Shown: positions 789 to 61,146 of the stretch, piece by piece | How positions within the stretch are numbered: position 1 is the stretch's first letter | How the letters are laid out: every line of letters starts with the position of its first letter | Source of the DNA: Phytohabitans rumicis | Lineage (GTDB): Bacteria; Actinomycetota; Actinomycetes; Mycobacteriales; Micromonosporaceae | NCBI RefSeq assembly: GCF_011764445.1 | Contig: NZ_BLPG01000001.1 | Location: 1,984,001-2,048,000 of the forward strand | Direction: 5' to 3' | DNA: 64,000 bases | The notes under the pieces: model-generated | The model's database searches: none | What the model was told of the DNA's origin: nothing | The model's input: only the letters and a program-made list of their open reading frames with translations | Program-made: the position numbers and the translations under genes

Positions 789-1900
789 GGCTGCGTCTCC
801 ATGTACCCGTCCTCGGTCGCCAGCATCCGCACGTGGTCGGCCGCCGGGCTGCCGCAGGCGCGCGGGCAGCCCACCCAGTGCACCGGCAGCGGGGGCGACG
901 ACTGTCCACTGTGGTGGGCGATCGCGTCGGCGCGTACGTCGGTCGCGGACTTGGCGCAGCCGGTGGAGCCCGCGCAGGCGGTCACGCCGACCCACGACGA
1001 GCCGGGATCCGTTGCCAGGCCGGCGTTTTCCAGCGCGGGCAGGAGCCCGAGGTCGGGCAGGTCGACCGCGACCACGCTCCGCCACGGCGTGACGACCACG
1101 CCCGGCGCCGCACACAGGACCTTGATCTGGGCGCGGTCGAGCCGGCCCAGCGGCGCGGTCGCGGCGATCGCCAACCGGCAGTCAGCCTGCGGGATGACGC
1201 CGATCGGGCCGTGCGCCACCGGTCGCGCGGGCGGCGCCGCCGCCGGCCCGGAGCCCAGGCGGGCCGCCACGAGCGCCGCGCCATCGTCTATTTCGGACAG
1301 CCGCCAGTGGTCGCCGCGCAGCGCCAGGAACGCGTGCGCCGCCGCCAGCAACACCGGCACCGCCTCGTCCGGGGCCACCCGCAGGCCGCTGTCCTGGCCG
1401 GCGAGCAGCACCGTCCGGCCGCGCAGTCCCACATCGGCGCCCAGCCCGGCCACGTCGCCGCGCCCGTCGTCGAGCGCGAACAGGAAGCGGCCGGGCAGCT
1501 GCGCCAGCGCCGGATCGGCGCACAGGGCCCGGTCGAGCGCCGCCACGAGCGACCGGACATCCAGCACGCCCCGCCCGTCGCGCCCGCTCAACGGCGAGGC
1601 GACGATGTTCCGTACCCGCTCATGGGTGACCGACGGCAGCAGGCCGGCCGCCGACAGCCGCGCGGCGAGCGCCGTCTCCGCGCCGGCCGCGAGGCCGCGG
1701 ACCTGGAGGTTGGCCCGGGACGTGAGCTCCAGCCCGCCGTCGCCCAGTTCGGCCGTCGCGTCCGCGAGCGCCCGCCACTGGGCGGCGGTCAGCGCGCCGC
1801 CGGGCACGCGGACCCGCGCCAGCCCGCCGTCGACGGCGCGGTGCACGTCGATCGCGCCGGGGCAGGCGTCGGGGTGGGACCGCCGGGGTGACCTGGGCAC
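785..1900 (-). CDS. cobG: Precorrin-3B synthase (sulfite/nitrite-reductase-like ferredoxin domain)
   Basis: A 371-residue monooxygenase that makes precorrin-3B in the oxygen-dependent cobalamin pathway. Near the N-terminus are DACPGA and the ferredoxin half-domain signature [12 protein letters not shown]. The four cysteine ligands of a [4Fe-4S] cluster are C309, C315, C345 and C349 (CAGSTGC and CPRAC). The GTG at 1900 was chosen because DACPG homology starts directly after it and a TAGTAT -10 box lies 7 nt upstream, consistent with a leaderless message. No Shine-Dalgarno is visible. The gene is divergent from cobN. CobG and CobN together mark the aerobic route. Confidence 0.9.
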
Positions 1901-1907
1901 GGGCCGG

Positions 1908-1913
1908 ATACTA
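1908..1913 (-). promoter_or_regulatory. -10 box of a leaderless cobG promoter
   Basis: TAGTAT on the minus strand ends 7 nt before the GTG of cobG. No ribosome binding site lies between, so the start codon is probably at or next to the transcription start. A weak TTGCGG about 19 nt upstream could be the -35. The same geometry recurs at other genes of this window. Confidence 0.5.
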
Positions 1914-1941
1914 CGGGCAGCTACGCTGGGGTCCGCAACCC

Positions 1942-2034
1942 GCGGCGACAAGCGGAGGAAGCCGGTGCGAGTCCGGCGCGGTCCCGCCACTGTCACTGAG
2001 CAACGACTCAGGAGCCAGACACTCCCGTCGCCGC
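1942..2034 (+). promoter_or_regulatory. Adenosylcobalamin riboswitch upstream of cobN
   Basis: The core carries the hallmark order of the class: GAAGCCGGTG, then GTCCGGC, GCGGTCCCGCCACTGT, and the downstream GAGCCAGAC. Outer arms GCGGCGAC (1942-1949) and GTCGCCGC (2027-2034) pair perfectly as the closing helix. It lies about 40 nt ahead of the cobN GTG on the same strand. By analogy with the family, cobalamin binding should lower cobN expression. Confidence 0.93.
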
Positions 2035-2075
2035 GTCCGACCAGCCGGGACGCGGATCCCGGGGAGGAGCCCGGC

Positions 2076-5000
2076 GTGATCCTGCTGCTGTCGACGTCCG
2101 ACACCGACCTGCTCAGCGCGCGGGCGAGCGGCGCCGCCTACCGCCTGGCCAACCCGGCCCGCACCACCGTCGACGACCTGCCCGCCCTGGTGGACGGCGC
2201 CGACCTGGTGGTGGTCCGGATCCTCGGCGGCCACCGGGCCTGGCAGGACGGGCTCGACGCATTGCTCGCCGGTGCGCGGCCGGTCGTCGTACTCGGCGGG
2301 GAGCAGGCGCCCGACGCGGAGCTGATGCGGCTCTCGACCGTGCCCAGCGGGGTGTGCGCGGAGGCGCACGCCTACCTCGCCCACGGCGGGCCGGGAAACC
2401 TGGCCGAGCTGCACCGCTTCCTGTCCGACACGGTGCTGCTGACCGGGCACGGGTTCGCGCCGCCGGCGCCCACGCCGACCTGGGGCGCCGGGGACCTGCC
2501 GGACGGCGACGGGCCGGTGGTCGCGGTGCTCTACTACCGGGCGCACCATGTGGCGGGAAACACCGCGTTCGTGTCGGCGCTGTGCGCGGCCGTCGCCGCG
2601 GCGGGCGGGCGGCCGCTGCCGGTCTACTGCGCCTCGCTGCGGACGCCGGACCCGGCGCTGCTGGCGACGCTGCGGCACGCCGACGCGCTCGTCGTGACCG
2701 TGCTCGCGGCCGGCGGCACGCGGCCCGCCGAAGCCAGCGCGGGCGGCGACGACGAGGCGTGGGACGTGGGCGCGCTGGCCGCCCTCGACGTGCCCATCCT
2801 GCAAGGGCTGTGCCTGACCACGAGCCGGCAGGCGTGGGCCACCGGCGACGATGGACTGTCCCCACTGGACGCGGCGAGCCAGGTGGCGATCCCCGAGTTC
2901 GACGGCCGGATCATCACGGTCCCGTTCTCCTTCAAGGAGGTCGACGCCGACGGGCTCACCGTGTACGTCGCCGACCCCGAGCGGGCCGCACGGGTGGCCG
3001 GGATCGCCGTCGCGCACGCCCGGCTGCGGCACGTCGCCGCGCCGGACAAGCGGGTGGCCGTCATGCTGTCCGCGTACCCGACGAAGCACTCCCGGATCGG
3101 CAACGCGGTCGGGCTGGACACGCCCGCGAGCACGGTACGGCTGCTGGCCGCCCTGCGTTCGCGTGGCTACGCCGTGGGTTCGGAGTTGCCGGCGGACGGC
3201 GACGCCCTGATGCACAGGCTCATCGCGGCCGGCGGGCAGGACCCGGACTGGCTCACCGACGAGCAGCTCGCCGGCAACCCGGTGCGCATCCCGGCCCGCG
3301 ACTACCTGGCGTACGACCGGACGCTGCCGGCGCGGCTGCGGGAACAGATCGAGCGGCACTGGGGCCCGCCCCCGGCGAGCTGTACGTCGACGCCAACGGC
3401 GACATCGTGCTGGCCGCGCTGCGCGCCGAAAACGTGGTCGTGATGGTGCAGCCGCCCCGCGGCTTCGGCGCCAACCCGATCGCCATCTACCACGACCCCG
3501 ACCTGCCGCCGAGCCACCACTACCTGGCCGCGTACCGGTGGGTGGCGGACTCCTTCGGCGCGCACGCCGTCGTCCACATCGGAAAGCACGGCAACCTGGA
3601 ATGGTTGCCCGGCAAGACGGTCGGCATGTCCGCGGCGTGCGGGCCGGACGCGGCGCTGGGTGACCTACCGCTGATCTACCCGTTCCTGGTCAACGACCCC
3701 GGCGAGGGCACGCAGGCCAAGCGCCGGGCGCACGCCACGCTCGTGGACCACCTGGTGCCGCCGATGGCGCGGGCCGAGTCCTATGGCGACATCGCCCGCC
3801 TGGAGCAGCTCCTCGACGAGCACGCCACCATCGCCGCGCTCGACCCGGCGAAGCTGCCCGCGATCCGGGCGCAGCTCTGGACGCTGATCCAGGCCGCGCG
3901 CCTCGACCACGACCTGGGGGTGGACGACCGGCCGCACGACGCCGAGTTCGACGACTTCCTGCTGCACGTGGACGGCTGGCTGTGCGAGGTCAAGGACGCG
4001 CAGATCCGCGACGGGCTACACGTGCTCGGCGCCGCGCCGACCGGCGAGGCCCGGGTCAACCTCGTGCTGGCGATGCTGCGCGCCCGACAGATGTGGGGCG
4101 GGCAGATCTCGCTGCCCGGCCTGCGCGAGGCGCTCGGGCTGACCTCGTCCCAGCGGTCCGATGTGGACCGCGTGGAGGCGCGGGCGCGCGAGCTGGTCGA
4201 GGACATGGAGGCGCACGGCTGGTCGCCCGACCGCGCCGGCGACGGCCCGGTCGGTGACGTCCTCCGCTTCGCCGCCACCGAGATCGTGCCCCGGCTGGCG
4301 CGTACGACGGACGAGCTGACGAACGTGCTGCACGCCCTCGACGGCGGCTACGTACCGGCCGGGCCGAGCGGGTCCCCCTGCGCGGCCTGGTCAACGTGCT
4401 GCCCACCGGGCGAAACTTCTACTCCGTCGACCCCAAGGCCATCCCGAGCCGGCTGGCCTGGGAGACCGGGCAGGCGATGGCCGACTCGCTGCTGGCCCGC
4501 TACCGCGCGGACACCGGCGACTGGCCCCGCTCGGTCGGGCTGTCCGTGTGGGGCACCAGCGCGATGCGTACCGCCGGTGACGACGTGGCGGAGGTGTTCG
4601 CGCTGCTCGGCGTCCGTCCACAGTGGGACGACGCGTCCCGCCGGGTGACCGGCCTCGCGCCGGTCCCGCTCGACGAGCTGGGCCGGCCCCGGATCGACGT
4701 GACGGTACGGATCAGCGGGTTCTTCCGCGACGCGTTCCCCCATGTGGTGGCGATGCTCGACGACGCGGTCCGGCTGGTGGCCGCACTCGACGAGCCGGCC
4801 GCCGACAACTACGTCCGGGCGCACGTGCTGGCGGACGTGCGGGAGCACGGCGACGAGCGGCGGGCCACGACGCGCGTCTTCGGCTCCAAGCCCGGCGCGT
4901 ACGGGGCCGGCATCCTGCCGCTGATCGACAGCCGGAACTGGCGCGACGACGCCGACCTCGCCGAGGTGTACGCGGCCTGGGGCGGCTTCGCGTACGGCCG

Positions 5001-12258: not shown

Positions 12259-12264
12259 ATGTTA
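12259..12264 (-). promoter_or_regulatory. -10 box of a leaderless promoter for the chelatase-cobO-cobB operon
   Basis: TAACAT on the minus strand ends 7 nt before the ATG at 12251, with no Shine-Dalgarno between. An ATG at 12260 overlaps the box and is therefore unlikely to be the start. It sits back to back with the riboswitch of cbtB-cbtA, but the riboswitch is transcribed the other way. Confidence 0.5.
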
Positions 12265-12274
12265 GGCTGCCCAG

Positions 12275-13375: not shown

Positions 13376-16300
13376 TCTCGACCGGCACCGCCTCGGTGTA
13401 GTGCAACCGTCCGAAGTAGACAACCTTGACGAGGGCCCACCAGTGGCTGCCCGGCCGGGCGGTGGCCGGCGCCGCGACTTCGTACCGCAGACGCGTGCTG
13501 CCGCCCGCCGGCACGGCGAAGCCCTGCGTCCACGGCGTGATGGCGACGCCGCAGTCCGGCCCGCCCCAGGTGCCGTACGGGCTCACCAACTGCGCCTCGC
13601 CGCGGATCTCGCCGGGCGACCGGTTGTCCAGCCGCACGGCGAGGTCGGCCCGAACACCTGGAGCGAGCCGGAGCGGCTCGGCGTCGAGGACGACGTCCAG
13701 CGGCACGCCCGCCTCGCCGACCGCCACCGCGACTACGTCCTCCAGCACCTGCCCGAGGTCGTCACGGATCCGGGCGCCCACGAAATACGTCCCCGCCGGG
13801 GCGCCGTCGGCGCGCACCCGCACCGCGAACTCGGCGTGCTCGCCCGCCGCCAGGTCGTACGGCAGCGGTCCGTCCGGGGTCACGGTGAGCCCGGCCGGCA
13901 CGTCCAGGTCGACCACGCCGGCCGCCGCACGGGTCCCGGACGCGACGCGTACCAGGACGGTGCCGCCCGGTGCGATGGACGTCGGTTCGACGTGGACGCT
14001 CACCGGCAGGTAGCCCACCGGGGCCGGACCCTTGTTGTGCAGCCAGTACCGGGTGTAGACCGGCTGAGCCGGCTCGATCACTCTGCTGGCTGGCGCTCGC
14101 TCCGCTCGCGCGGGCCCCAGGGCCGCGCCGGCAGCCAGCAGCAGCGGCTGGGCGCCGACCGTCACCACGTCCGCTGCGGCCAGGTCGACCACCGCAGCCT
14201 CACCGTCCACAGTGAGCGGGCCGCGCGCCGTGCCCTCCAGCAGATCCGTCGCGACCGCGCTGTCGAGCCCGCCGTGCAGGCGCACCGTGGCCGTTGCCGG
14301 GGCGCCGGCCGACTCGTACAGGCGGAACGTCACCCCTGACGAGCCGTCGTTGGGCTGGCCAGACGCCATCGGGTTGCCACGCGGCTTGAGCGCGGCCAGC
14401 ACGACCGTCTCCGGCTCGACGGAGGCGAGGCTCAGGCTCGCCGGGAGCGGGCCGGCGGCGGCGGGCACCTCCGTGGCGTGCACCGGGTGGTTGACCTCCT
14501 GACCGGCGCGCACGAAGCCGGCGTCCCGCCAGTCACCCGCGCCGGCCACCAGGCTGTAGCGGAACGTGTGGGTCCAGTGCTGCCAGGCGAACGAACTGCC
14601 GTCCGGGGCGGTGCGCCGCGGCCCGTCGATCCAGACGCCGCACGGCCACGCGCTGCACGACCGCATCAGCGACAGGTACAGCGTGCCGTCGGGCTCGGCG
14701 ACGAAGCTCGGCGTGCCGTGGTTGACCAGCGCGACCGAGTGGCCGCCGAACGGCTCGGCGACCGGCGCGACGCCCGCCGCGTCGATGGCCGTGCCGTCGA
14801 CGTCCAGCGCCTCGCCGGCCACCACGAGCACCGGCAGGTCGCGCGGGCCGCGCAGGTCCGCGTCCGGCGTCCAGGCCGCCCGGCGGCTGCGGTCCGCGGG
14901 GACGAAGACCTTTCCGGTACGCGCCAGCGCCTCCCGGTACGCCGGGCCGGCCGACTCCAGCACCGCCGCCGCGAAGGAGTTGCCGGCGCCCAGCGCGATC
15001 CGCACGTCCGGCAGGTTCGAGTCGGCGTCCAGGGCGCCGTAGCGTTGCCCGTCCGGGCGGGTGCCGGTGGCGGTGACCCCGATCGCGGCGAGCCGGACGA
15101 GCAGGTCCCGGGCCGGTGCGTCCGCGATCACCTCGGCCACGCCGATCGCGTGCTCCTGGCGGCTCCCGTCGGGCAGTCGTACCCGGATCCGCGCCGTCGC
15201 GGACAGCCCGGCCCAGGTGTGCGCCGGATTGTCCAATGTCCACAGATGTTCGGCGGCGTCCGAATTGGGAAAGCCGAACGACCGGCCGATCGCGGCGAAC
15301 CCCACCTCGGACACCGGAAGCGCGCCGGGCGCGTCGAGGTCGAAGCGCACCCGCAGCAGGTGGTCCTGCCCGATGGAGCCGTCGACGTGGGTGCGGAAGT
15401 CGACCCGGTCGACGCCGTCCCACAGTGTGACCTCCTGGCGGGCGCGCAGGTCGCCGAGGTCCGCGACCGAGACGACCCGGCTGCCGACCGGGCTCGTCTC
15501 CGCGTACACCTCGGCGGGTCCGGCGCCGTGACCGGGCCCCTTCGGCAGCAGGTGCCACGGCCCCTCGCCCCACCGTGGATGGGAGTCGTGCTCCTCCTGG
15601 CGGACGAGCGCGCCGCCCAGGCCGCCGGGGCGCAGCAACTCGCGGCCGGTCCGGCGGTCAAGGACGCGGGACAGCGCGCCGCCCCGGGCCGGGTCGGCCG
15701 CCACCAGGAAGGCGTCGTTCGACGCGGTGTGTCCGGTGGCCCGGGTCCAACCCGCGGGCACGTCGGGCGCGTCGAGGACGCGGTAGACCCGGTAGCCGAC
15801 CGGCGGGACCGCGCGGGCCAGGAACGAGAGCGTGACCTCGGCGAGCGTGCCATCCGGGTGCCGGCATACCCCTTCGGATACCGCCTTCACGGGCTCGCCA
15901 TCGTCGGAGGCGACGGCAACCCCTTGCGGGCCGGGCGCGTCGAACGCCAGCCGGACCGTGGTGACCCCGTCGCGCGCCCAGGACAGCGGGTTGACCACCA
16001 GCACCGGGCGCCCCGGGCCAGCGGTGCCGACCTGCTCCCCGATGGCGCGCACCGCCGCGTCCCGCGCGCCGGCGGACCACTCGTACGCCTCGCGCCAACC
16101 GCCGAGCAGGTCCAGGTAGACCTGGTCGGACTCGGTGCCGGTGACCGCGTCGTGGTGGGCGCCGTAGGCCAGCTGCCGCCACGCCTTGTCCAGCGCCTCG
16201 GCCGGAAACCGGTGCCCGAACAACGTGGCCACTGTGGACAGCCGCTCCGCGTCCAGCACCGCGACCTCGCCGGCCCGCTGGGCCTGTTTGGTGTCGATGT

Positions 16301-17534
16301 AGGACACGTCCTTGCCGGTGTAGACCGGGTTCATGTCCCGGGTCTGCGGTGACAACGACCGTCCACTGTGGGCAAGGTCGGCGCGTACGGCGGCGAAGAA
16401 GTCGCGCGGCAGGCCGACCACGAAGCGGGGCCACACGTACCGCTTGGCCCAGTGCCGGTGGATCTCCGTGCACCAGCGCGACGGCACGTTGTGGTCGTGT
16501 CCCACGGGCAGCAGCACGTTGCGCGTCGCGGCGACCCGCTTCAACTCCCGGAACTGGGCGTACGCCTCGGCCATCGCGGCGTCGAGCGTATCCTTGCGCT
16601 CGATGTCCCAGCCCGCCACATAGTGGTTGGCCATGTACGCGGTCAGCAGCCCGCGCCCGCTCGGCGAGACCCACTCGAACTCGCTGGGAAACTGCATCCG
16701 GGTGATGTCGCCGGTATGCCGCTTCGCCCCGACGTGGTGGAACGGCCCGCGCGCCCAGGCGCTGGAGTCCAGGCCGGCGTCCGCCATGAGGCCGGGAAAG
16801 GCCGGGTCGTGCCCGAAGACGTCGAGCATCCAGGCCGAGCGGGGATCGCCGCCGAGCACGTCGCGCTGGTATCCGATGCCGTAGACCGCGTTGCGGATCG
16901 TCGACTCGGGGTGGGTGAGGTTGGTGTTGGGCTCGTTGTACGCCCCGCCGACCAACTCGACGCGCCCCTCGTGCAGGAACCGGCGCAGCTCGGCCCGGTC
17001 ACCGGGAAACGCGTCCCAGTACGGCTTGAGGTAGTCGATCTCGGCGAGCACGAACCGGTAGTCCTCGTCGTGCCGGGCCGCCTCCAGGTGCGCCCGGACG
17101 AGGTCGAACGCCGTCCGCACGAACGGTGGCCGCAGCCGGTCCGCCCACGGCAGGTCGTGCCAGACCTCGGTGAAGCCGCCCTGGGTGTTCCACCACACCG
17201 GGTCGTAGTGGAAGTGCGACACCATCCACATCGTCCAGCCGGTGTCGGCCGCCGTGATGAACGTGTCCACCATGGACGGTTGGTCGTCGACGAGGGCGGT
17301 GACCCGGTGCACCGAGCCGGCCGGCGCGGGGGCGGCGATCCGCACCCCGACCTCGACGACGCCCGGCACCTCGTGGACCACCACGGGCTCCGGCGTGGTG
17401 ACCGACGGCCCCTCGACGCGTACCGTGACGGGTCCTCGCCCCTCCCCCAGGGTGACCCGCATCACCTGCAGCGGCGCGCTGGCCGTACCCGTGAAGAGGT
17501 CCGTGCCCTCGACGGCCAAAACGCGCGGTGTCAC
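13359..17534 (-). CDS. Large GH38 alpha-mannosidase with C-terminal NEW3-like domains
   Basis: A 1391-residue glycoside hydrolase. After an N-terminal beta domain of about 100 residues, the catalytic domain begins with HFHYDPVWW, where His and Asp bind zinc. The nucleophile aspartate lies in WMLDVFGHDP, and the conserved GAHHDAVTGTES follows. The C-terminal 400 or so residues are beta-rich and contain a LxVxxGxxAxxxVRLDNRSPG-like NPCBM/NEW3 pattern. No signal peptide is seen, so it is probably cytoplasmic. The GTG at 17534 was chosen for its GGGAGG Shine-Dalgarno 6 nt upstream; a GTG 42 nt earlier has none. It stands alone, convergent with cbtA, with no sugar transporter beside it. Confidence 0.88.
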   Translation of the reverse strand: MTPRVLAVEGTDLFTGTASAPLQVMRVTLGEGRGPVTVRVEGPSVTTPEPVVVHEVPGVVEVGVRIAAPAPAGSVHRVTALVDDQPSMVDTFITAADTGWTMWMVSHFHYDPVWWNTQGGFTEVWHDLPWADRLRPPFVRTAFDLVRAHLEAARHDEDYRFVLAEIDYLKPYWDAFPGDRAELRRFLHEGRVELVGGAYNEPNTNLTHPESTIRNAVYGIGYQRDVLGGDPRSAWMLDVFGHDPAFPGLMADAGLDSSAWARGPFHHVGAKRHTGDITRMQFPSEFEWVSPSGRGLLTAYMANHYVAGWDIERKDTLDAAMAEAYAQFRELKRVAATRNVLLPVGHDHNVPSRWCTEIHRHWAKRYVWPRFVVGLPRDFFAAVRADLAHSGRSLSPQTRDMNPVYTGKDVSYIDTKQAQRAGEVAVLDAERLSTVATLFGHRFPAEALDKAWRQLAYGAHHDAVTGTESDQVYLDLLGGWREAYEWSAGARDAAVRAIGEQVGTAGPGRPVLVVNPLSWARDGVTTVRLAFDAPGPQGVAVASDDGEPVKAVSEGVCRHPDGTLAEVTLSFLARAVPPVGYRVYRVLDAPDVPAGWTRATGHTASNDAFLVAADPARGGALSRVLDRRTGRELLRPGGLGGALVRQEEHDSHPRWGEGPWHLLPKGPGHGAGPAEVYAETSPVGSRVVSVADLGDLRARQEVTLWDGVDRVDFRTHVDGSIGQDHLLRVRFDLDAPGALPVSEVGFAAIGRSFGFPNSDAAEHLWTLDNPAHTWAGLSATARIRVRLPDGSRQEHAIGVAEVIADAPARDLLVRLAAIGVTATGTRPDGQRYGALDADSNLPDVRIALGAGNSFAAAVLESAGPAYREALARTGKVFVPADRSRRAAWTPDADLRGPRDLPVLVVAGEALDVDGTAIDAAGVAPVAEPFGGHSVALVNHGTPSFVAEPDGTLYLSLMRSCSAWPCGVWIDGPRRTAPDGSSFAWQHWTHTFRYSLVAGAGDWRDAGFVRAGQEVNHPVHATEVPAAAGPLPASLSLASVEPETVVLAALKPRGNPMASGQPNDGSSGVTFRLYESAGAPATATVRLHGGLDSAVATDLLEGTARGPLTVDGEAAVVDLAAADVVTVGAQPLLLAAGAALGPARAERAPASRVIEPAQPVYTRYWLHNKGPAPVGYLPVSVHVEPTSIAPGGTVLVRVASGTRAAAGVVDLDVPAGLTVTPDGPLPYDLAAGEHAEFAVRVRADGAPAGTYFVGARIRDDLGQVLEDVVAVAVGEAGVPLDVVLDAEPLRLAPGVRADLAVRLDNRSPGEIRGEAQLVSPYGTWGGPDCGVAITPWTQGFAVPAGGSTRLRYEVAAPATARPGSHWWALVKVVYFGRLHYTEAVPVEIRPAP

Positions 17535-20615: not shown

Positions 20616-21468
20616 GTACGCCTCCGGCGGCGGCCAGCGCGCGCCGGGTCAGCACGGTGGCCAGGTGCGTGCGGTAGTCGGCGGACGCGGTCACGTCGGT
20701 CGGGGGCGCGGTGCCCTCGGCGGCCCGTTCGGCGGCGGCGGCCACGGCGTCCATGGTCGCCGGGGCGCCGACCAGCGCCTCCTCCACGCCCCGGGCCCGG
20801 ATCGGCGTGGCGCCCATGTTGGTCAGCGACACGCGGGCCTCGGCGATGCTGCCGTTGTCCCGGCGTACGGCCGCGGCGACGCCGACGATGGACCACGCCT
20901 GCGCCACCCGGTTGAACTTCTCGTAGTGCGTGCCCCACCCGTCCTGCTTCGGGACCCGGACGGAGACCAGCACCTCGTCCGGGCCCAGCGCGGTGGTCAG
21001 GAAGTCCACGAAGAAGTCGGACGCGGCGACCGTGCGGCGGCCACCGGGTCCAGCGATCTCCATGACCACGTCCAGCGCGACCGCCACGCCGGGCAGGTCG
21101 CCCGCCGGGTCGGCGTGCGCCAGCGAGCCGCCGATCGTGCCGAGGTGGCGCACCTGGCGGTCGGCGACCGTGGCGGTGGCCTGGGCCAGCAGCGGCGCGT
21201 GCGCGCGCACGAGCGGGTCGCGCAGGATGTCGGCGTGCCGGGTCATCGCGCCGATGACCAGGGCGTCGCCGTCGTCGCGGACGTCGCGTAGCTCGCCGAG
21301 GCCGCCGAGGTCGACGAGCACGCTGGGCGCGGCCAGCCGCAGGCGCAGCACCGGGATCAGGCTCTGCCCGCCGGCCAGCACCTTGGCGTCCTCACCACCG
21401 TCCGTCAGCGCCTGGACCGCCTCGTCCACGGTGGACGGACGGACGTACTCGAACGCGGCCGGGATCAT
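20605..21468 (-). CDS. Molybdenum hydroxylase FAD-binding medium subunit (CoxM-like)
   Basis: A 287-residue protein with both FAD-binding motifs of the family: LAGGQSLIPVL near residue 32 and TIGGSLAHADPAGD near residue 110. It passes electrons from the [2Fe-2S] subunit to an acceptor. It overlaps the large-subunit gene by four bases (ATGA), so L, M and S are translated as a coupled set, in the order S-L-M. Confidence 0.92.
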   Translation of the reverse strand: MIPAAFEYVRPSTVDEAVQALTDGGEDAKVLAGGQSLIPVLRLRLAAPSVLVDLGGLGELRDVRDDGDALVIGAMTRHADILRDPLVRAHAPLLAQATATVADRQVRHLGTIGGSLAHADPAGDLPGVAVALDVVMEIAGPGGRRTVAASDFFVDFLTTALGPDEVLVSVRVPKQDGWGTHYEKFNRVAQAWSIVGVAAAVRRDNGSIAEARVSLTNMGATPIRARGVEEALVGAPATMDAVAAAAERAAEGTAPPTDVTASADYRTHLATVLTRRALAAAGGVHAA

Positions 21469-26949: not shown

Positions 26950-29900
26950 ATGGATCGCGTCTGTCTGAAGTGCGACGCGCCCGCCGACCCCTCCCATCAG
27001 TTCTGCGGGCGTTGCGGAGCACCGCTGCACACCCGCTGCGGCGCGTGCCTGACGCTGGTCGCGCCCGGACTGAACTTCTGCACCGCCTGCGGCCGCCAGC
27101 TGTCCCGCGACCTGTCCGCGACCGGCGCCGTCCGCGAGGAGCGGCGCACCGTCAACGTGCTGTTCGTGGACCTCAAGGGCTTCACGAACATGGCCGAGAG
27201 CCTCGACCCGGAAGACCTGCGCCAGCTGCAGCTGGACTACTTCAGCACGGCCCGCGAGGTGATCCGGCGCTACGGCGGGGTGGTGGAGAAGTACATCGGG
27301 GACGCGGTGATGGCCGTGTTCGGCGTACCCGTGGAAACCGAGCACGACGGCCTGCGTACCGTGCTGGCGGGCCTGGAGCTGCAGCGGGAGCTGGACGGGC
27401 GGGCGCTGGCCGGCCGCTACCCGATGCGGGCGCGGGTCGGCATCGCCACCGGCGAGGCCCTGGTCGACCTGGCCGCGGCCCGCAACGGCGGCGAGGCGCT
27501 GCTGTCCGGCGACGTCGTCGCCACCGCGGCGCGGCTGCAGACCCACGCGCCGCCGGGCGGCGTCCTGGTCTCGGCGGTCACGCACCGCGCCACCGCCGGT
27601 TCCATCCGGTACGACGAGGCGCCGTTGCGCCTGGAGCTGGCCGGCAAGTCGCAGCCGGTCGAGGCGTGGCTGGCCCGGGCGTCGGTACGGCGGCCGCCGG
27701 TCCCCGACGACGAGGCCACTCCCCTGGTCGGCCGGGCCGCCGAGCTGGACCTGCTCATGGCCGCGCTGCGCCGGTGCGTGTCGGAGCGCCGCGCGCACCT
27801 GGTCTCGGTGGTGGGCGCGCACGGGATGGGCAAGAGCCGGCTGGTGCGGGAGCTGTTGCGGCGGGTGCACGACGACAGCGGCCTGCTGGTGCGGTGGCGG
27901 GTCGGGCGCTGCCTGCCGTACGGGGCGGGCGGCACGTACGACGCGCTCGCCGAGATCATCAAGACCGAGGCGGACGTGCTGGACACCGACGACCCGGTGC
28001 GCACCCGCGAGCGGCTGGCCACCGCGCTGGCCAAGGTGCTGCCGGCCACCGAGGTGGAGCGGCTGACCAACCTGCTCGGCCCGCTGGCCGGGCTGCCCGG
28101 CCGGCCGGTGCGGCCGGGCGAGATCGAGGCCGCCTGGCGGGACGCGCTGCTGGCCCTGGCCCGGCACCTGCCCACCGTGCTCGTCGTGGAGGACCTGCAC
28201 TTCGCCGACCCGGCGCTGCTGCGCTTCCTGGCCGAGCTGGTGGAGACCGGCGGGGACGCGCCGCTGCTGGTGCTGTGCACGTACCGGCCGGAACTGCTGG
28301 ACGAGCAACCGGCCTGGCCGTCCGCGCTGCCCGGCATGCTGACCGTGTCGCTGTCCCGGCTGCGCGCCGACGAGATGCGCACCCTGCTGTCCACCTTGAT
28401 GAGCCGGCACGGCGTGGCCGCCGAGCACACCGAGCGGCTGACCGGGCTGACCGGCGGCAACCCGATGTACGCCGTCGAGTACGTGCGGATGCTCGCCGAC
28501 GGCCAGGGCGACCTGGACGTGCCGGACAGCGTGCACGGCGTCATCGCCAACCGCATCGACCTGCTCGACAACGCCGAGCGCACCCTGCTCAACGCCGCCG
28601 CCGTGCTCGGCGACCGGCTCTGGCCGGGCGCTATCGGCACCATGCTGAGCCTGGACGGCGCCGACGTGGCCGGCGTGCTGGTCCGGCTGCAGCGCCGGGA
28701 CTTCTTCGTCGCCGGCTCGGTGTCCACTGTGGCCGGCGAGGCGGAGCTGACCTTCCAGCACCAGCTGGTCCGCGAGGTCGCGTACCGGCGGCTGCCCCGG
28801 GCCACCCGGGCGGCGCTGCATCGCCGGGCGGCCGGCTGGCTGCAGGCGGTCTCCATCGACGGCCGCCACGACCTGGCCACCGCCGTGGCCCGGCACCGGA
28901 TCGAGGCGCTCGCGCTCGCCGAGAGCCTTGGCGAGGACACCGCCGCCGACGTCCAGGCGGCCCGCGCGGCGCTGCGGGCCGCCGCCGACGCGGCCTTCGC
29001 CGTGTACGCCGTGGAAGCCGCCCTCGGGTACGTCGGCCAGGCGCTCAACGTGTGGCCGGTGGACCACGAGCCGGCCCAGCGGCGCACCGCCGAGCTGCTG
29101 CACCACCGGCTGCAGTTCCTCGTCGACAGCGACCGCTTCTACCGCGAGTACGGCGTCAAGGAGGTCACCCGGCTCGCCGAGCGGATGCGCGAGGCCGGCG
29201 ACCGCACCGGCGAGGCCCGCGCCGAGACGCTGCTCGGGCAGGCCGAGTTCATGCGCGCCGAACGCGACCGGGCCCGCGAGCACCTCGACCGGGCACTCGC
29301 CCTCTTCGCCGACCTGCCCGACGACGCCGCCAAGGCCGAGGCGTACGGCGAGCTGGCCCGGCTGCACCTGCTGGAGTTCCAGACCGGCGCCGCGCTGCCG
29401 GCCGCCCGCGCCGCCCGGGAACTGGCGCACCGGCAGGGCCTGGCCGACGCCGAGATGCACGCCCTCGTCACCGAGCACGCCACCCGGTACGTGGCCGGCG
29501 ACGCGTCCGCCCTGGCCGACCTGGAACGGGCCGTCGAGGTGTGCCGGGCGCAGAGCCTGCCGACGCTGCGCCGGGCCGCGCACAACCTGGCCACGTTCCG
29601 CCAGGAGGAGGGCGAGCTGGCCGGCGCGGCCGAGCTGGAACGCGAGAGCCGGGGTGTCCACGGTGGACAGCTCAGCCTCGTACTCAGCCACTCGGAGGAG
29701 GCCGAGGTGGCGTACTTCACCGGCGACTGGCCGGCCCTGCTGCGCGCCGCCGACGAGTACCTCGACGAGGAGGGCGCCGACACCACCGACTGGGATCTGC
29801 AGCTGCGCGGCCGGCGGGCCTGGATCGGCGCGCTGTGCGGGCGGCCCCAGGTCTCCGACGTGGCCCGCAGCCTGGACGTCGCCCGCCGGTCCGGGTTCGT

Positions 29901-47175: not shown

Positions 47176-48492
47176 TCAATCCGGCAGATCCGGCGGATCG
47201 TGCGGCACGACGTACCGGTGGCCGAGCCGGCTGGTCCAGACGAACACTCCGGGCATGATCTGCAGCACGTCGACGCCGTCGTGGTGCTTGTAGCCGTGGT
47301 GGTGGCGGCACATGACACCCAGGTTCTCCGGGATCGTCGCCCCGCCCTTGGCGAAGTCGCGAGTGTGGTCCAGATCGGCGTGACTGGCCGGCACCCGGCA
47401 ACCCGGCGCCCGGCACGTGACGTCCCGCGCCTTCACGAACTGCTCGTCGATGCGCGTCGGGCGGCGCCGGACCCGACCATGGAACACGAGCCCACCGCTG
47501 TCGTCGTACACGCTGGCCCGCCAGGGACCGCGCGCCTGCTGCTTTGCGATCTTGCGAGCGATCTCGCCGATCACCGGCCCCCAACCCGCGACCTCGCCCG
47601 GCTCGTTCGACAGCCCCATCAACGTGGACAGCGAAACGCGCAGCTCCACGGCACCACCCGCAGCCGCGCCCGCGGTTTCGACTCCGGTCAACAGATCCAG
47701 GAACGTGTCCGCCCGCAGCGCGTCCATACTCCGCTCGTCACCTGCCTGCTTCACCGCACGGGCGATCGCGTCGATCCGCGCCAGCGCTTCCGCCGCCCGG
47801 TCGGCGGGCAACCGGTAGCCGGCCAGCCTCGCGGTGCCGTGCTCATCAAGACCACTGTGGACAGAGCGGCGCGCGACCGAGCGCTCCTGCCTCCTGCGGG
47901 CGGCATCTGGATCGACGGAGATGACCTTGCGTCGCAAGCGGGCGCCGATCTGGCCCGTCGTACGATTCGTCGCCCAGTCCAGCTCCTCGCCGGCGACCTG
48001 CCGTGCGGTCGGCTCGTCCAGGACCGCCGTCTCGGCGGCGAACACCCGCGCCCGCGCCAGATCGAGCTGGCCCCGCGACAGGGCCTCGTGCACCGCCGGC
48101 AAGCGGTTGACCAGATCCAGAGCCAGGCTCAGCATCCGATCGGCGGGACGCCTCGTCAGGCACAGCGCCATCCGGATCTCATCCGAGGCGAACTCGTCCG
48201 GGCGCTCCATCCGCCCTGCCGGCGAATCGAACTCCCCCGACGCGCAATGAGCCACCTCCACCATGTCAGCGAGCAGCGCGGCCTGCTCGTGTGCGATCTG
48301 ACGCGACCGGGCCCGCATCAGCTCCACCATCTCGTATCCATTGAGGACTGATCTGTCCACAGTGGCCAGAAATGCGGCCAGCTCCGGACCCGGCGCCATC
48401 TCGGCGAGATCCTCCAGCAACACACCGTCTAACACATCCGGGACCGTAAACCCACCCACCGACAAGAACCGCAAGCCGAGGTCAGACGGCAT
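47176..48492 (-). CDS. DUF222 and HNH-endonuclease domain protein
   Basis: A 438-residue protein. The helical DUF222 domain covers most of it, and the C-terminal HNH domain has CRAPGCRVPASHADLDHTRDFAKGG with ENLGVMCRHHHGYKH. These are abundant in actinobacteria and may be remnants of selfish elements, or nucleases in recombination. There is no adjacent integrase. Two of the twelve GTCCACWGTGG motifs lie within it. Confidence 0.9.
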   Translation of the reverse strand: MPSDLGLRFLSVGGFTVPDVLDGVLLEDLAEMAPGPELAAFLATVDRSVLNGYEMVELMRARSRQIAHEQAALLADMVEVAHCASGEFDSPAGRMERPDEFASDEIRMALCLTRRPADRMLSLALDLVNRLPAVHEALSRGQLDLARARVFAAETAVLDEPTARQVAGEELDWATNRTTGQIGARLRRKVISVDPDAARRRQERSVARRSVHSGLDEHGTARLAGYRLPADRAAEALARIDAIARAVKQAGDERSMDALRADTFLDLLTGVETAGAAAGGAVELRVSLSTLMGLSNEPGEVAGWGPVIGEIARKIAKQQARGPWRASVYDDSGGLVFHGRVRRRPTRIDEQFVKARDVTCRAPGCRVPASHADLDHTRDFAKGGATIPENLGVMCRHHHGYKHHDGVDVLQIMPGVFVWTSRLGHRYVVPHDPPDLPD

Positions 48493-51739: not shown

Positions 51740-53097
51740 CTACGGCAGCCGCTCGCGGGCCCGTGAATCCGATATATCGGGTACGTCCTGGTGCGTCGAC
51801 CAGGCCACCATGAAGACCACCGTCCACAGCACGCCGAGCAGCACCGACGTCACCATCTGGCTGGCGGTGTTGAAGGCGACGTAGAGCCGGGCCGCCGACA
51901 CGGTCGCCAGCCCCACCCCCGCGGCGGTCCACGCCGCGACCGCGGCCGGCCACCGGGTGCGCTGGGCGACCAGCCAGGCGAGCGTGCACAGGCTGGCCGT
52001 CACCACCGCGTGCTGGGTGAGGAAGTACCGCTCCGGCACCAGGACGCGCTCAGCCGCGGCGAGCACCACCAGCGGCAGGAACGCGCCGACCGTGCCGATC
52101 AACGTGACCAGGTCGCCCCGCCACGCCCGGGTACGCCAACCCAGCACCAGGGCGACGACGGCCACCGCGAGCACCAGGTACTTGGGGGTGAACACGTCGA
52201 CCACGAGGTTCGCGGAGTGCGCGAAGCCGTCGGTGCGCCGGTAGGCGATCCAGTTCGCGATCGCCGTGTCCACCACCGAGAGTCCACTGTGGAGCACCAC
52301 GGCGTTGACCAGCCAGGCCATGACGACCGCGAAGAGCAGCAGCAGCGCCAGGCCCGAGACGAGGTTGAGCACGAACGCCCACCCCGGACCGATCTTCATG
52401 GACAGCAGGAAGAGCAGCAAGCCGTACCGCTGCGTGACCCACCGCATCGGCGGCATGCCCCCGCACGCGTCGCGAGCGCCTTGACCGGGTCCGGGTTGCG
52501 GCCCAGCCACCGTCCGATGAGGACGATCACGACGACGGCGACCAGCAGCACGAGCACCGCGCCGGTCGCCCTGCCCAGGTACTCCGACACGGTCTCGTAC
52601 GACTCGCCGGCCAGGTAGCCGACCGTCACGGACGCGCCGACCCAGGTGACCACGCCCAACGCGTTCCAGGGCGCGAACCACCGGTACGGCATGCCGGCGC
52701 CGCCGGCCAGCCGGGGCGCGAGCGTCCGCACGAACGCCACCCACCGGGCCCCGAACATGGCCCGGCCGCCGAGCCGGGCCAGCATCGCGTCGGCCTTGTG
52801 CCAGCGCTCGTAGCCGACCCGCCGGCCCCAGCGGCTGGCGCGCAGCCGCGGCCCGTAGCGCCGGCCGCTGCGGAAGGCCAGCGTGTCGCCGGCGAGCGCG
52901 GCGAGCATCATCAACGCGATGGCCGGGCCGAGCCGCAGGGTGCCCAGGTACGCCAGGAAGCCCACGGTCAGCAGCGTCGCCTCGGCGGGGACCACCATGC
53001 CCACGATCACCGCGGTCTCGCCCGCGACCAGCAGCGCCGCCACCACGTACACCAGCACCGGCGGCAACTGCTCGAGCAAGTTCAGCAGGTCTTGCAC
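51740..53097 (-). CDS. Fused DedA / PAP2 membrane protein (one frameshift)
   Basis: About 452 residues after repair. The N-terminal DedA domain has ETAVIVGMVVPAEATLL, GDTLAFRSGRRYG and RWVAFVRTLAPRLAGGAGMPY. The C-terminal PAP2 domain has YFLTQHAVVTASLCTLAW (histidine motif) and several helices. The frame breaks in the CCCCC at 52458-52462; one added base joins KALATRAG to GMPPMRWVTQRYG, so DedA and PAP2 are one protein, as known elsewhere in actinobacteria. GTG 53097 is the start, divergent from typA. DedA proteins are linked to lipid-carrier flipping, and PAP2 to dephosphorylating lipid pyrophosphates. Confidence 0.87.
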
Positions 53098-56820: not shown

Positions 56821-56826
56821 AGCTAC

Positions 56827-57746
56827 GTGCTTGCCGCCGTGCGCGCGACCGTCGCGACGCTGTGGTCGAGCCCCGAGGCGGTACGGCCGGTGGACCGTCC
56901 CGCACTCGGCCGGCTCGCCGACATCCCCCGCTGGGTATCCGGAATGGACACCGACCAGCAAGTCAGTGACTGTGTGCTCAGTCAGCTACTGCTCGGCGAG
57001 CGGGTGCTGGTCGAGGAGGTACGGTCCGACGGGTGGGCGCGGGTCGTCGCCGTCGAGCAGCCGGCGGCCAAGCTCGACCCGCGCGGCTACCCCGGCTGGC
57101 TCCCGGTCGGGCAGTTGGCGGCGGCCAGACAGGCCGAGGGCGCCGTGGTCGTAGACGCCACCACGACCGCGCTCCGCGACCGGCCGGACGGCGGCGTGGT
57201 GCTGGCCGGGGTGATGCTCGGCACCCGCCTGTCCCCGCCGGCGCCGCCGAGCGCGGCTGGCTGCCGCTGCACGTCCCCGGCCACGACAGTCCACTGTGGG
57301 CACCCGAGCGGGACCTGGCGCCGTTGCCCGCCGACCCACCCACGGCGGCGCAGGTGCTCGGCGTCGCCCGCCGCCTGCACGACGTCGTGTACGTCTGGGG
57401 CGGTGTCTCCACGTACGGCATCGACTGCTCCGGCCTGGTGCACCTGGCCTGGCGGCGCTTCGGCGTACGGCTGCCGCGGGACGCCGACGACCAGGCCAGG
57501 GCCACCACTCCCCTGGCCCTCGGCGAGGAACGCCCCGGCGACCTGTACTTCTTCGCCCGGCCCGGCCGTGGCGTGCACCACATCGGCTTCGTGTCGGCCT
57601 ACCCCGGGGCACGGCGCCAGATGCTGCACGCCTGCTACACCCGGCGCCGGGTCATCGACGAGCCGCTGGCCGGCGACCGGGCGGACACCCTGGTCGCCGT
57701 CCACAGGGTCTCAGACGGGCGGGTCTCAGCGCTCGGCGCCGACTAA
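56827..57746 (+). CDS. NlpC/P60 (C40) peptidase with SH3-like domains (one frameshift)
   Basis: About 306 residues after repair. Two SH3b-like modules come first, then the papain-like C40 domain with the nucleophile Cys in YGIDCSGLVHLAW and the His in GVHHIGFV. Such enzymes cut D-Glu-meso-DAP or related murein bonds. There is no signal peptide, consistent with murein-fragment recycling. The frame breaks in the CCCC at 57233-57236; one added base joins GTRLSP to AGAAERGWLPLHV. It overlaps the convergent TerC gene by 21 nt. Confidence 0.85.
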
Positions 57747-58987: not shown

Positions 58988-58993
58988 GCCCGC

Positions 58994-59287
58994 ATGGTGC
59001 TTGAGGTGGCTTTGATCGACATCGTGGCAGGCCAGGAGGACGACTTCGCGGCGGCGTACGCGAAGGGCCACCCCGTGCTGGCCAGCACCCCCGGCTGCCG
59101 GTCGGTGCGGATGACACGCGGCATCGAGTCACCGACGCGGTTCGTCCTGCTCGTCGAGTGGGACACGGTCGAGGCCCACATCGAGAACTTCCGCGACACC
59201 GAGCGCTTCACGACCTGGCGGTCGCTCATCGGCCCCTACTTCGCCGCGCCGCCGGTGGTCGAGCACTTCACGGACGTTCCTGCCTAG
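58994..59287 (+). CDS. Antibiotic biosynthesis monooxygenase (ABM)-domain protein
   Basis: A 97-residue ferredoxin-like dimeric barrel: VALIDIVAGQEDDFAAAYAKG, then PGCRSVRMTRGIESPTRFVLLVEWDT and the C-terminal EHF. Such proteins act as small cofactor-free oxygenases or as stress proteins. Its end overlaps the convergent SRPBCC gene by four bases. Confidence 0.85.
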   Translation: MVLEVALIDIVAGQEDDFAAAYAKGHPVLASTPGCRSVRMTRGIESPTRFVLLVEWDTVEAHIENFRDTERFTTWRSLIGPYFAAPPVVEHFTDVPA

Positions 59288-59718
59288 CTGGTACGCCCGG
59301 CGGCCGCCTTCGCCAGCCCGTCCGCGCAGCCCTTGATGAACCTGCCGAGGAACCACCGGTAGAACCCGCCCATCCACGGCCGGCGCGCGGTGAACGTGGA
59401 GTGCCAGCGGATCAGCGTGCCGTCCTCGACCGGGGTGAGGTCGACGTCGGCGCGGTAGCCGTCCAGCGCCATGCCGGACAGCAGCACGTAGCTCAGCCGG
59501 CGCCCCGGCACCGCCTCGACGATCTCCTCCCGGGTGGTGAACGGCCACGTCCGGAACACCCGGATCGCGCCGACCCCCTCCCCGCCCGTGGCGTCGGGGC
59601 GTTCCAGCGCGAACGATCCCAGCCCCGACCACGTCGGCCAGGTCGCGCCGGACTTCAGTAGGTCGTACACGGTCTCCGCGTCGGCGCCCGAGCGAGCCGT
59701 CACATCGATGTCACGCAT
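59284..59718 (-). CDS. SRPBCC-family polyketide cyclase/dehydrase-like protein
   Basis: A 144-residue START-like protein: VYDLLKSGATWPTWSGLGSF, GAIRVFRTWPFTTREEI and DGTLIRWHSTFTARRPWMGGF. A hydrophobic pocket for a small ligand is expected. The start codon lies inside a 22-bp palindrome shared with the divergent tetR gene, so expression is almost surely under TetR control. Confidence 0.85.
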   Translation of the reverse strand: MRDIDVTARSGADAETVYDLLKSGATWPTWSGLGSFALERPDATGGEGVGAIRVFRTWPFTTREEIVEAVPGRRLSYVLLSGMALDGYRADVDLTPVEDGTLIRWHSTFTARRPWMGGFYRWFLGRFIKGCADGLAKAAAGRTS

Positions 59719-59736
59719 GTACCATATGGTACATGC
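59715..59736. promoter_or_regulatory. 22-bp perfect palindrome: TetR operator with two facing leaderless promoters
   Basis: The palindrome reads GCATGTACCAT followed by its exact reverse complement. It holds the ATG of both divergent genes (59718 minus and 59733 plus). On each strand TACCAT lies 7 nt before the ATG, the spacing of a leaderless -10. The two -10 boxes abut head to head, so one bound dimer would block both genes. Confidence 0.85.
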
Positions 59737-60290
59737 CCGATCCCCGGCAGCGCCTGCTCGACGCCGCCATCGACCACCTCGCCGCGCACGGCCTGAGCGA
59801 CCTCAGCCTCCGGCAGCTCGCCGCCGCGCTCGGCACCAGCCACCGCATGCTGATCTACCATTTCGGCTCCAAGGAGGGCCTGCTCGTCGAGGCGATCCGG
59901 GCGGTGGAGCGGCGGCAGCGGGACGCCTTCGCCGAGGTGAGCGTCGAGAACGCGGCCAGCCCCGGCGACGTGCTCCGGCGAATGTGGCAGCGGTTCGCCG
60001 ACCCCGCCCTCGCCCCCCACGAACGGCTGTTCTTCGAGGTGTACGGCCAGGCGCTGCAAGGCCGGCCGCACGCCGTACCGCTGCTGGACGGGATCGTGGA
60101 GTCCTGGCTGGAGCCGGCCGTCGAGTACGCGCGGCGGCATGGCGTACCCGAAGACGTCGCGCGGGCCGACGCGCGGCTCGGCGTGGCCGTCATGCGCGGC
60201 CTGTTGCTGGATCTGCTCGCCACCGGCGACCGGGAGGGCGTCGACGCGGCGCTGGAACGATTCGTCGAAGCCTACGAGACGGTGCGCTGA
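59733..60290 (+). CDS. TetR-family repressor
   Basis: A 185-residue protein with an N-terminal helix-turn-helix (about residues 8-52, LSLRQLAAALGTSHRMLIYHF) and a C-terminal ligand domain. It is divergent from the SRPBCC gene, and both starts lie inside one palindrome, so it should repress itself and its neighbour. The inducer is unknown; it may be the ligand of the SRPBCC protein. The 3' end overlaps the GNAT gene by 19 nt. Confidence 0.92.
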   Translation: MPDPRQRLLDAAIDHLAAHGLSDLSLRQLAAALGTSHRMLIYHFGSKEGLLVEAIRAVERRQRDAFAEVSVENAASPGDVLRRMWQRFADPALAPHERLFFEVYGQALQGRPHAVPLLDGIVESWLEPAVEYARRHGVPEDVARADARLGVAVMRGLLLDLLATGDREGVDAALERFVEAYETVR

Positions 60291-61146
60291 AACCTCGCGC
60301 GCCGGCCGAGCAGGGTAAAGCCCAGCCGGGTGTAGAGCTGGCCCGCCGGGTTGTTGACGTTCACGTCGAGCAGGGCGTCGGCGGCGCCGGTGGCCCGCAT
60401 CCGCCGCAGCGCCTCGGCCACCAGAGCCGCGCCCAGTCCCCGCCCGCGCCAGGCCGGCACCACGCCCACCTGGACGATCCACCCCTGCGCGCACGTGATG
60501 AACCCGGCGTCGTCCCCGTCCACCCCCGTCGCCAGCAATGACCACTGTGGACGGAACTCGTCGTCGCCCGCGGTCCACGCCACCCACCGCTCCGCCGGCC
60601 AGCCCGGAAAGCCCGGCCGGTCCCGGAACGACGCGTCATAGACGGCGAAGAACCGGCCCGCGATGTCGGACCCCCACTCCCCCAGCCGTACGCCCGGCGG
60701 CAGCGCCACGTCCGGCGGCTCGGCGCCGGCCAGGTCGAAGCGCATCACGTCCTCGGCGAAAACCTGGCGCAGCCCGCGGCTGGCGAACAGGCGCTCCGTC
60801 GCCGCGGTGAGCGCCTCGGTCTCCACCGTCACGCCGTCCGCGATCGTGGCCGCCGCCGACAGCCCCAGTCGAGCAGCCGGCCGCCCACGCCCCGCCCGCG
60901 GTGCGCCGGGTCCACCAGCCCGATGACCGCCACGCCCGGCTGGAGCCGCCGGACGGCCGCCGCCGCGACCAGCTCCCCGCCGGCGGTGCGCCCGCTCGTC
61001 GTGATGACGCCGTCGGCCGCGTACCGGCTGAGGGTGACCTCGGTCATCCCGCCGTCCGCCGCATGGCACCGCCCCGCCAGCCCGGCCAGATCCCCCGCGT
61101 CCGCGGCCCCGTCCAGCGGCCCCCAGGTCAGCTCCCCGCTATGCAC
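60272..61146 (-). CDS. GNAT acetyltransferase with two GNAT domains (one frameshift)
   Basis: About 291 residues after repair. The first domain has VIGLVDPAHRGRGVGGRLLDW, the second IVQVGVVPAWRGRGLGAALV with LDVNVNNPAGQLYTRLGF, a double-GNAT build as in mycothiol synthase (MshD) and its relatives. The frame breaks in the CCCC at 60863-60866; one added base joins RLLDWG to LSAAATIADG. MshD itself is not claimed. Confidence 0.82.

What the first reader, a model, noticed from the sequence alone, without database searches (positions are those of the whole stretch)
901..60550. Highly iterated motif GTCCACWGTGG spread over the window
Reading by eye I find the 9-mer CCACWGTGG at 906, 4618, 16229, 16363, 28724, 30327, 32212, 47852, 48357, 52284, 57291 and 60542. 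All twelve fit the longer form GTCCACWGTGG or its reverse complement. With about 72% GC, roughly 0.1 copies of the 11-mer would be expected in 64 kb. Almost all copies lie inside genes of unrelated function. Nine of twelve point the same way on the chromosome regardless of gene direction. Near copies (for example TGTCCACGGTGGACA at 29655) also exist. It resembles an architecture or processing signal (HIP1-, Chi- or KOPS-like), or a methylase/restriction-linked site, and I know of no description of it.
Basis: partly seen in the sequence, partly recalled or inferred. Interest (0 to 1): 0.8.

Follow-up and report, generated by a model that had tools for sequence, protein, structure and literature searches.

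The report
Iterated palindrome with candidate PadR binder
Some soil actinobacteria carry hundreds of copies of one short palindrome scattered through their genes, and comparative evidence suggests that it is the binding site of a conserved PadR-type DNA-binding protein that may help to organise the chromosome.

Summary
All 12 copies of GTCCACWGTGG are at the stated places (shuffles give 0.10); the genome has 412 matches, the backward control 11. The site is a threshold version of the palindrome GTCCACWGTGGAC: a W centre tolerates one poor arm, an S centre needs both. Sites are conserved in genus mates (154/228 comparisons; random windows 31%; look-alikes 8/55). Matches per genome range from chance level to 1,376 and are mostly genus-stable. 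In two species of this genus sites are sparser near oriC, but not in another family.

The likely reader is a PadR-family protein encoded beside prfB. Of 35 promoters from motif-rich genomes, 27 carry the motif or a near copy (other upstream regions: 5%), and promoter match tracks motif density (Spearman -0.56). Outside the window's family, 8 of 8 rich and 6 of 24 poor genomes have such a PadR. I propose a site-specific nucleoid-associated PadR. Binding is inferred, not shown; why PadR-bearing genera differ in site number is unexplained. KOPS-like and methylase readings fit worse. I found no description in the held papers.

The parts
904..914 (+). motif copy GTCCACTGTGG
   Evidence: retained in 2 of 4 aligned genus mates
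4616..4626 (+). motif copy GTCCACAGTGG
   Evidence: retained in 4 of 4 genus mates
16229..16239 (-). motif copy
   Evidence: no alignment in genus mates
16361..16371 (+). motif copy
   Evidence: no alignment in genus mates
21424..21436 (.). S-centred full palindrome GTCCACGGTGGAC, same site class
   Evidence: orthologous site in 3 of 3 genus mates, with centre C, T and T
28722..28732 (+). motif copy
   Evidence: site in 5 of 5 genus mates, centre T or A
29656..29668 (.). S-centred full palindrome GTCCACGGTGGAC, same site class
   Evidence: retained in 4 of 5 genus mates
30325..30335 (+). motif copy
   Evidence: retained in 0 of 2 genus mates
32210..32220 (+). motif copy
   Evidence: retained in 0 of 4 genus mates
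47852..47862 (-). motif copy
   Evidence: retained in 0 of 1
48355..48365 (+). motif copy
   Evidence: retained in 0 of 1
52282..52292 (+). motif copy
   Evidence: retained in 3 of 4
57289..57299 (+). motif copy, intergenic by my gene caller
   Evidence: retained in 1 of 4, one of the misses a gap
60542..60552 (-). motif copy
   Evidence: retained in 2 of 2

Best explanation
GTCCACWGTGG is the genome-wide binding site of a conserved, prfB-linked PadR-family dimer (in this genome at G000:C1:5387445-5387960, outside the window). The dimer reads GTCCAC-W-GTGGAC with a score threshold and represses its own promoter through the same kind of site. In some genera of Micromonosporaceae, Pseudonocardiaceae and related families, hundreds of sites have been fixed by point substitution, mostly inside genes, where the protein acts as a site-specific nucleoid-associated protein. 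Shown: the sites, their enrichment, conservation and threshold behaviour, the matching PadR promoter sites, and the tracking of promoter match and genomic density. Inferred: that PadR binds the sites, that it represses itself, and that the function is chromosome organisation. I put the PadR link at about 0.75 and the architectural role at about 0.5.
For: (1) A scan of the genome collection for two perfect palindromes within 30 bases gave 41 stretches. Four were from actinobacteria with few copies (three Rhodococcoides stretches and a Propionibacteriales MAG; genomes counted: 4, 5 and 7 matches, one Rhodococcoides strain not counted), and all four lay beside a PadR gene. (2) Motif-like sites (at most 2 mismatches to the 13-mer within 160 bases upstream) occur in 27 of 35 prfB-linked PadR promoters from motif-rich genomes, against 4.9% of 328 gene-upstream regions in rich genomes; in poor genomes 11 of 18 are within 3 mismatches, against 7% of 158. 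Six of 8 Pseudonocardiaceae promoters carry one or two CCACWGTGG copies, most of them 35-67 bases upstream; both Crossiella carry only a 2-mismatch form. (3) Reduced to 45 entries (one per genus, except two genera entered twice; 28 rich, 17 poor), promoter match tracks motif density: Spearman -0.56, P 6e-5; Fisher P 1e-4. (4) Outside the window's family, a PadR hit is present in 8 of 8 rich (at least 60 matches) and 6 of 24 poor genomes, P 3e-4; all 15 rich genomes reached through and searched have one (several repeat genomes). (5) Flat-top enrichment: W-centred one-mismatch forms at the outer three pairs and S-centred perfect forms are each about 100 to 300 times over expectation in the genus, the perfect W form likewise on 2 sites. 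(6) Conservation 154 of 228, against look-alikes 8 of 55. (7) The protein is PadR by Pfam and by fold search with a modest single-sequence model; PadR-family NapM of M. tuberculosis is reported at 573 ChIP-Seq sites.
Against: PadR is not sufficient: every motif-poor genome of the window's family also has it, with the recognition helix nearly unchanged by eye, and motif-poor G006 (5 matches) has the same promoter site as the window's genome. In the window's genus, and often in its family, the promoter site is GTGCACWGTGGA, two mismatches from the consensus; some of the 27 near matches are not at the conserved place (for example G029, G026, G031). G010 is motif-rich (583) without a PadR hit (69% complete). 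In five rich genomes (G001, G032, G044, G052, G074) the PadR locus read was not prfB-linked and was left out; 12 of the 62 genomes with a hit were not read. oriC depletion holds in two species of the genus, not in G052. Promoter avoidance is modest and seen only in the genus. Genomes are related and the cut-offs were chosen after seeing the counts, so the P values are optimistic. Why site number differs up to about 200-fold between genera is unexplained.
Confidence: 0.6

Rival explanations
1. HIP1-like by-product of DNA methylation and repair: an orphan methyltransferase recognises a core of the palindrome, and biased mismatch repair ratchets sequences towards it; the sites need have no function.
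For: Cyanobacterial HIPs are palindromic, iterated, low in some genomes, and track methyltransferases (Elhai 2015, PMC4390886: abstract, passages and part 1 of section 18 seen).
Against: The trade-off between centre and arm, and the lack of preference for the perfect palindrome in the window's genus (2 perfect against 62 one-mismatch W sites, similar enrichment at the outer pairs), do not suit a strict enzyme site or a ratchet with a perfect end state; in other rich genomes the perfect form does dominate. ACWGT alone is only 1.0-1.9 fold over expectation in the rich samples, 1.2 in the poor. A mutational process does not predict matching sites in PadR promoters. Methyltransferases were not searched for.
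Confidence: 0.12
2. Architectural site of another, unidentified protein; the PadR promoter match reflects a shared or secondary recognition.
For: PadR is present in motif-poor genomes with nearly the same recognition helix, so something else must set the number of sites.
Against: The promoter match is specific (27 of 35 against 5%) and tracks density; beside tandem sites in motif-poor actinobacteria only PadR and its divergent neighbour recurred.
Confidence: 0.2
3. Polar chromosome signal of the KOPS or Chi kind.
For: 9 of 12 window copies point one way; G003 has 280 plus to 215 minus, P 0.004.
Against: The signal is a palindrome. In the GTCCACWGTGGT subset (100 of 110 places listed, 97 on C1) orientation is 21+/27- left and 31+/18- right of oriC (hand count); in G003 the plus excess is on both sides of the inferred oriC (hand count of the 100 listed of 138).
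Confidence: 0.03
4. Ordinary regulon of a transcription factor.
For: The PadR promoter itself carries a site; in rich genomes outside the genus, spacers are not avoided.
Against: 71 of 79 sites in the genus lie in genes; 0 in divergent and 2 in co-directional spacers where about 11 were expected (P 0.0014; with the oriC stretches 4 against 11.6, P 0.01).
Confidence: 0.05

Closest known systems
HIP1 and other highly iterated palindromes of cyanobacteria (PMC4390886)
   Same: Palindromic, iterated, dense in some genomes and low in others, palindromic extensions
   Different: 11-13 bases long; about 10 to 210 matches per Mb in the rich genomes instead of 300-2700 per Mb; threshold behaviour; linked here to a PadR-family protein, no methyltransferase examined
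NapM (Rv0047c), PadR-family nucleoid-associated protein of mycobacteria (PMC13340245, passages seen)
   Same: PadR family, reported genome-wide binding (573 sites)
   Different: Distant homologue (8jxk: E 2e-4, 20-22% identity); the terms 'binding motif', 'sequence-specific' and 'palindrom' do not occur in that paper's main text
Gbn, GATCWT-binding nucleoid-associated protein of Streptomyces (PMC9239103, abstract and passages seen)
   Same: Actinobacterial protein reading a defined short site at thousands of places
   Different: Described as a new family with a three-helix HTH; a 6-base site, not an 11-13-mer
MatP-matS (recalled)
   Same: 13-base palindrome with a degenerate centre, uneven along the chromosome
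   Different: matS is confined to Ter with about 20 copies; here hundreds of copies, sparser near oriC in one genus only

Membership tests
Highly iterated palindrome (HIP class) | Palindrome over-represented far beyond low-order Markov expectation across the genome | tested here: met
Highly iterated palindrome (HIP class) | Company of a methyltransferase specific for the core | not tested
   No methyltransferase search was made
PadR family | PadR winged-helix domain and helical C-terminal domain | tested here: met
   PF03551 E 2e-8 and PF10400 E 1e-4; fold search, model mean pLDDT 66
Site-specific nucleoid-associated protein | Recognises the site | tested here: inconclusive
   Promoter sites and covariation support it; no binding assay
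Site-specific nucleoid-associated protein | Occupies many chromosomal sites in vivo | not testable with these tools
   needs ChIP-seq
KOPS/Chi polar motif | Orientation co-directional with replication, flipping at oriC | tested here: not met
   (hand counts of listed places)
Restriction-modification or orphan methylase site | Strict recognition sequence | tested here: not met
   Centre and arm trade off in the window's genus
matS-like macrodomain site | Confined to one chromosomal domain | tested here: not met
   5.0 per Mb within 1 Mb of oriC and 7.0 to 15.5 per Mb beyond in G000 (GTCCACWGTGGT subset); no depletion at the presumed oriC of G052
DNA uptake sequence | Enhances DNA uptake by a competence system | not testable with these tools
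   no experiment; competence genes not searched

The most novel reading that the evidence does not exclude
A widespread actinobacterial chromosome-organising system: a prfB-linked PadR dimer with hundreds of genome-wide palindromic sites, kept by selection above an affinity threshold, with promoter site and genomic site set evolving together; its site number grew and shrank independently in several families.
Probability: 0.45. Interest if true: 0.82.

Novelty: new variant of a known kind. Interest (0 to 1): 0.7.

Why it matters
Iterated palindromes such as HIP1 have lacked an agreed reader and purpose. This one comes with a specific candidate reader, related rich and poor genomes, and a simple prediction (PadR sits on the sites), so the question becomes directly testable. 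If true, it adds a site-specific nucleoid protein to families known for antibiotic producers and gives a sequence marker of its activity.

Tried and rejected
Looser class GTCC-N5-GGAC: about 4-fold enriched at spacing 5, but 81 of 105 genic cases with other centres sit in one codon phase (24 more were intergenic), so I read it as coding-driven and dropped it.

PadR covariation by eye: my first look found a perfect-looking promoter site in motif-poor G006 and no clear pattern; the counted version gave a trend, with G006 as an exception. PadR protein sequence: no residue separated rich from poor by eye.

oriC depletion as a general rule: present in G000 and G003, absent at the presumed oriC of G052; not claimed beyond the genus. 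Near oriC of G000 the motif is still 24-fold over expectation (4 matches) against 96-fold elsewhere. In G052 spacing is more even than random on C1 and C2 (P 0.005 and 0.02) but not on C3 or C4; not followed.

Rhodobacteraceae, Roseovarius and Lutimaribacter tandem hits: where I read the ORFs (L235, L259) they are repeats inside one gene, and the one such genome counted has 18 matches (G640); set aside as unrelated. Luteolibacter hit (L240): three flanking ORFs without a Pfam match; unresolved. Viral contigs: 69 stretches with the 15-mer, highest 5 CCACWGTGG in 14.5 kb; no lead followed. De novo k-mers found other repeats first. Papers: (35 papers hold a motif string; the 20 listed are unrelated by title), and searches listed no description of this motif or of this PadR; for these I saw listings only, except the three papers named.

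Counts corrected: the Fisher test used 23 poor genomes; there are 24 (rerun).
Full report
Observation. The 9-mer CCACWGTGG also occurs exactly 12 times, so the outer GT is part of the motif. None is the full 13-mer, but two S-centred full palindromes occur (21424, 29656). The genome (10.7 Mb, 3 contigs) has 412 matches against 11 for the pattern read backwards (the tool listed 100 places). Matches are counted per strand, so a perfect palindrome counts twice; this genome has 16. The window is about 5 times denser than the genome mean.

What the site is. From 724 kb of the genus (non-oriC samples of this genome plus syntenic blocks of five relatives) I counted 13-mers against a Markov-3 expectation. 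W-centred perfect: 2 found, 0.01 expected. W-centred with one mismatch at the outermost pair: 14 (0.05); second: 31 (0.12); third: 8 (0.04); fourth to sixth: 3, 2, 4 (0.12, 0.13, 0.05). S-centred perfect: 16 (0.16); S-centred with one mismatch at positions 1 to 5 is at 0 to 4 times expectation, but at position 6 it is 15 (0.56), mostly C to T. So broadly either a W centre or a second full arm will do: a flat-topped threshold, as expected of a dimer's binding energy. In 259 kb of other rich genomes (G017, G029, G052, G069; some stretches chosen because sites were listed there) the perfect W palindrome dominates (16 sites). A looser class, GTCC-N5-GGAC, proved to be coding-driven.

Conservation. 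In syntenic blocks of six species (each species pair counted in both directions), 154 of 228 aligned sites are still sites in the other species. Random windows are identical at the ten defining positions in 31% of 107,800 cases (a slightly stricter test, since a site may keep its status in more than one way), other 9-mer controls in 68 of 182, and S-centred look-alikes below threshold in 8 of 55. At 28722 the centre is T in some species and A in others while the rest of the 11-mer is unchanged. Not all sites last: 5 of the 12 window copies are retained in none or one of the species aligned, and two have no alignment.

Place. With a simple gene caller, genus sites (784 kb) are 71 in genes, 6 in convergent, 2 in co-directional and 0 in divergent spacers (promoter-bearing spacers under-used, P 0.0014; with the oriC stretches 4 against 11.6, P 0.01). 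Other rich genomes do not show this. Centres favour codon position 3 in the other rich genomes (60 of 70 genic sites) and less so here (10 of 22); S-centred controls favour it too. oriC lies near 4.44 Mb (GC-skew change; parB in L138). In 460 kb around it there are 8 CCACWGTGG and 35 CCACSGTGG; in 340 kb elsewhere 16 and 18 (P 0.013, or 0.002 with the window). The 11-mer is still 24-fold over expectation near oriC (4 matches), against 96-fold elsewhere. The GTCCACWGTGGT subset gives 5.0 per Mb within 1 Mb of oriC and 7.0 to 15.5 beyond (97 sites on C1). G003 has a like gap at 2.69-4.76 Mb, where synteny puts oriC (P 0.0003 for a 1.6-Mb window; 100 listed of 138). G052, of another family, shows no gap at its presumed oriC on C2, though C3 has gaps of 0.4-0.5 Mb. 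Orientation does not flip at oriC.

Distribution. In 81 genomes (this one and 80 relatives) the count runs from 0 to 1282 matches. In 300 genomes of the window's family it is mostly stable within genera: g25 826-1282, g13 263-840, g1 293-535, while the large genera g4 and g30 have 6 to 63 (backward control up to 31); g40 is mixed, 313 and 43. Identical sizes and counts identify family f1 as Micromonosporaceae (G029 = Virgisporangium aliadipatigenens and four others). Named rich genomes include Herbihabitans (1376), Crossiella (1282, 1168), Allokutzneria (1143), Streptoalloteichus (828) and Amycolatopsis (726, 471); Herbihabitans is in Pseudonocardiaceae, the others by recall. In the 296-genome phylum sample the full palindrome has 16 copies in this genome and 0 to 2 in every other.

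The candidate reader. A scan for two close perfect palindromes (41 stretches) included four stretches from motif-poor actinobacteria, and in all four the pair lies beside a PadR-family gene. Relatives of that PadR were found in 62 of 81 genomes; I read the locus in 50 of them, and 18 more loci. prfB lies in 58 of the 68 loci, mostly next to PadR and about 3.6 to 6.6 kb away in four; in this genome the neighbours are a protein kinase, prfB, an ABC ATPase in ftsE position, ftsX, a peptidase M23 gene and smpB. The promoters carry the motif or a near copy: 27 of 35 rich within 2 mismatches against 4.9% of 328 controls, and 11 of 18 poor within 3 mismatches against 7% of 158 (63 unique promoters of 68 loci, 10 not prfB-linked counted apart). 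In one search (45 entries; g25 and g52 entered twice, otherwise one per genus, the densest) closeness of the promoter site tracks genome density, Spearman -0.56. A small part of this is expected, since a random 160-base window in a rich genome is within 2 mismatches 3-5% of the time. Outside the window's family 8 of 8 rich genomes (at least 60 matches) have a PadR hit, against 6 of 24 poor; of the eight, prfB linkage was seen in five, not in the loci read of G052 and G074, and G067 was not read. All 15 rich genomes reached through and searched have a hit. The one rich genome without a hit, G010, is a 69% complete draft.

Mechanism. I conclude that this PadR reads the palindrome and, in rich genera, binds it genome-wide as a nucleoid-associated protein. 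Shown: sites, enrichment, conservation, threshold, promoter sites, covariation. Inferred: binding, autoregulation, architecture. The main gap is that PadR, with a nearly unchanged recognition helix, is also present in motif-poor genera; site number must be set by something else (abundance, partner, or history). Methyltransferases were not surveyed.

Known relatives. HIP1 of cyanobacteria is the nearest iterated palindrome (PMC4390886); Gbn (PMC9239103) and NapM, a PadR-family protein with 573 reported sites (PMC13340245), are the nearest proteins. None combines an over-represented long palindrome with a PadR reader in what I saw. The searches behind 'not described' were made, of open-licence PMC papers only.

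Noticed in passing
window 19237-19300 and 19876-19940 (approximate): Copies of an abundant intergenic repeat of this species (CCTTGATCGACG and GGTCGTG...CACGACC parts): 113 CCTTGATCGAC hits in 864 kb of this genome, 108 intergenic, none in 320 kb of genus mates or in the other relatives sampled. REP- or MITE-like.
   Followed up: partly
window 12262-12435 and 1955-2024: Two cobalamin riboswitches (104 and 37 bits).
   Followed up: no
L023 10024-10069: Two perfect palindromes 33 bp apart between a PadR gene and a divergent gene (DUF1707-like by my reading, not searched) in Rhodococcoides; a like pair stands beside a PadR gene in a Propionibacteriales MAG: a likely operator.
   Followed up: partly
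G052 C1 and C2: Site spacing more even than random (CV 0.61 and 0.66; P 0.005 and 0.02), not on C3 or C4.
   Followed up: no
L235, L259: Rhodobacterales gene with repeated STVD codons that spell GTCCACAGTGGAC in tandem.
   Followed up: no
L240 5228-5282: Luteolibacter tandem of GTGTCCACAGTGGACAC-like palindromes; flanking ORFs without Pfam match.
   Followed up: no
window, all: Motif density in the window is about 5 times the genome mean; the listing shows further copies just downstream, up to 2.13 Mb.
   Followed up: no
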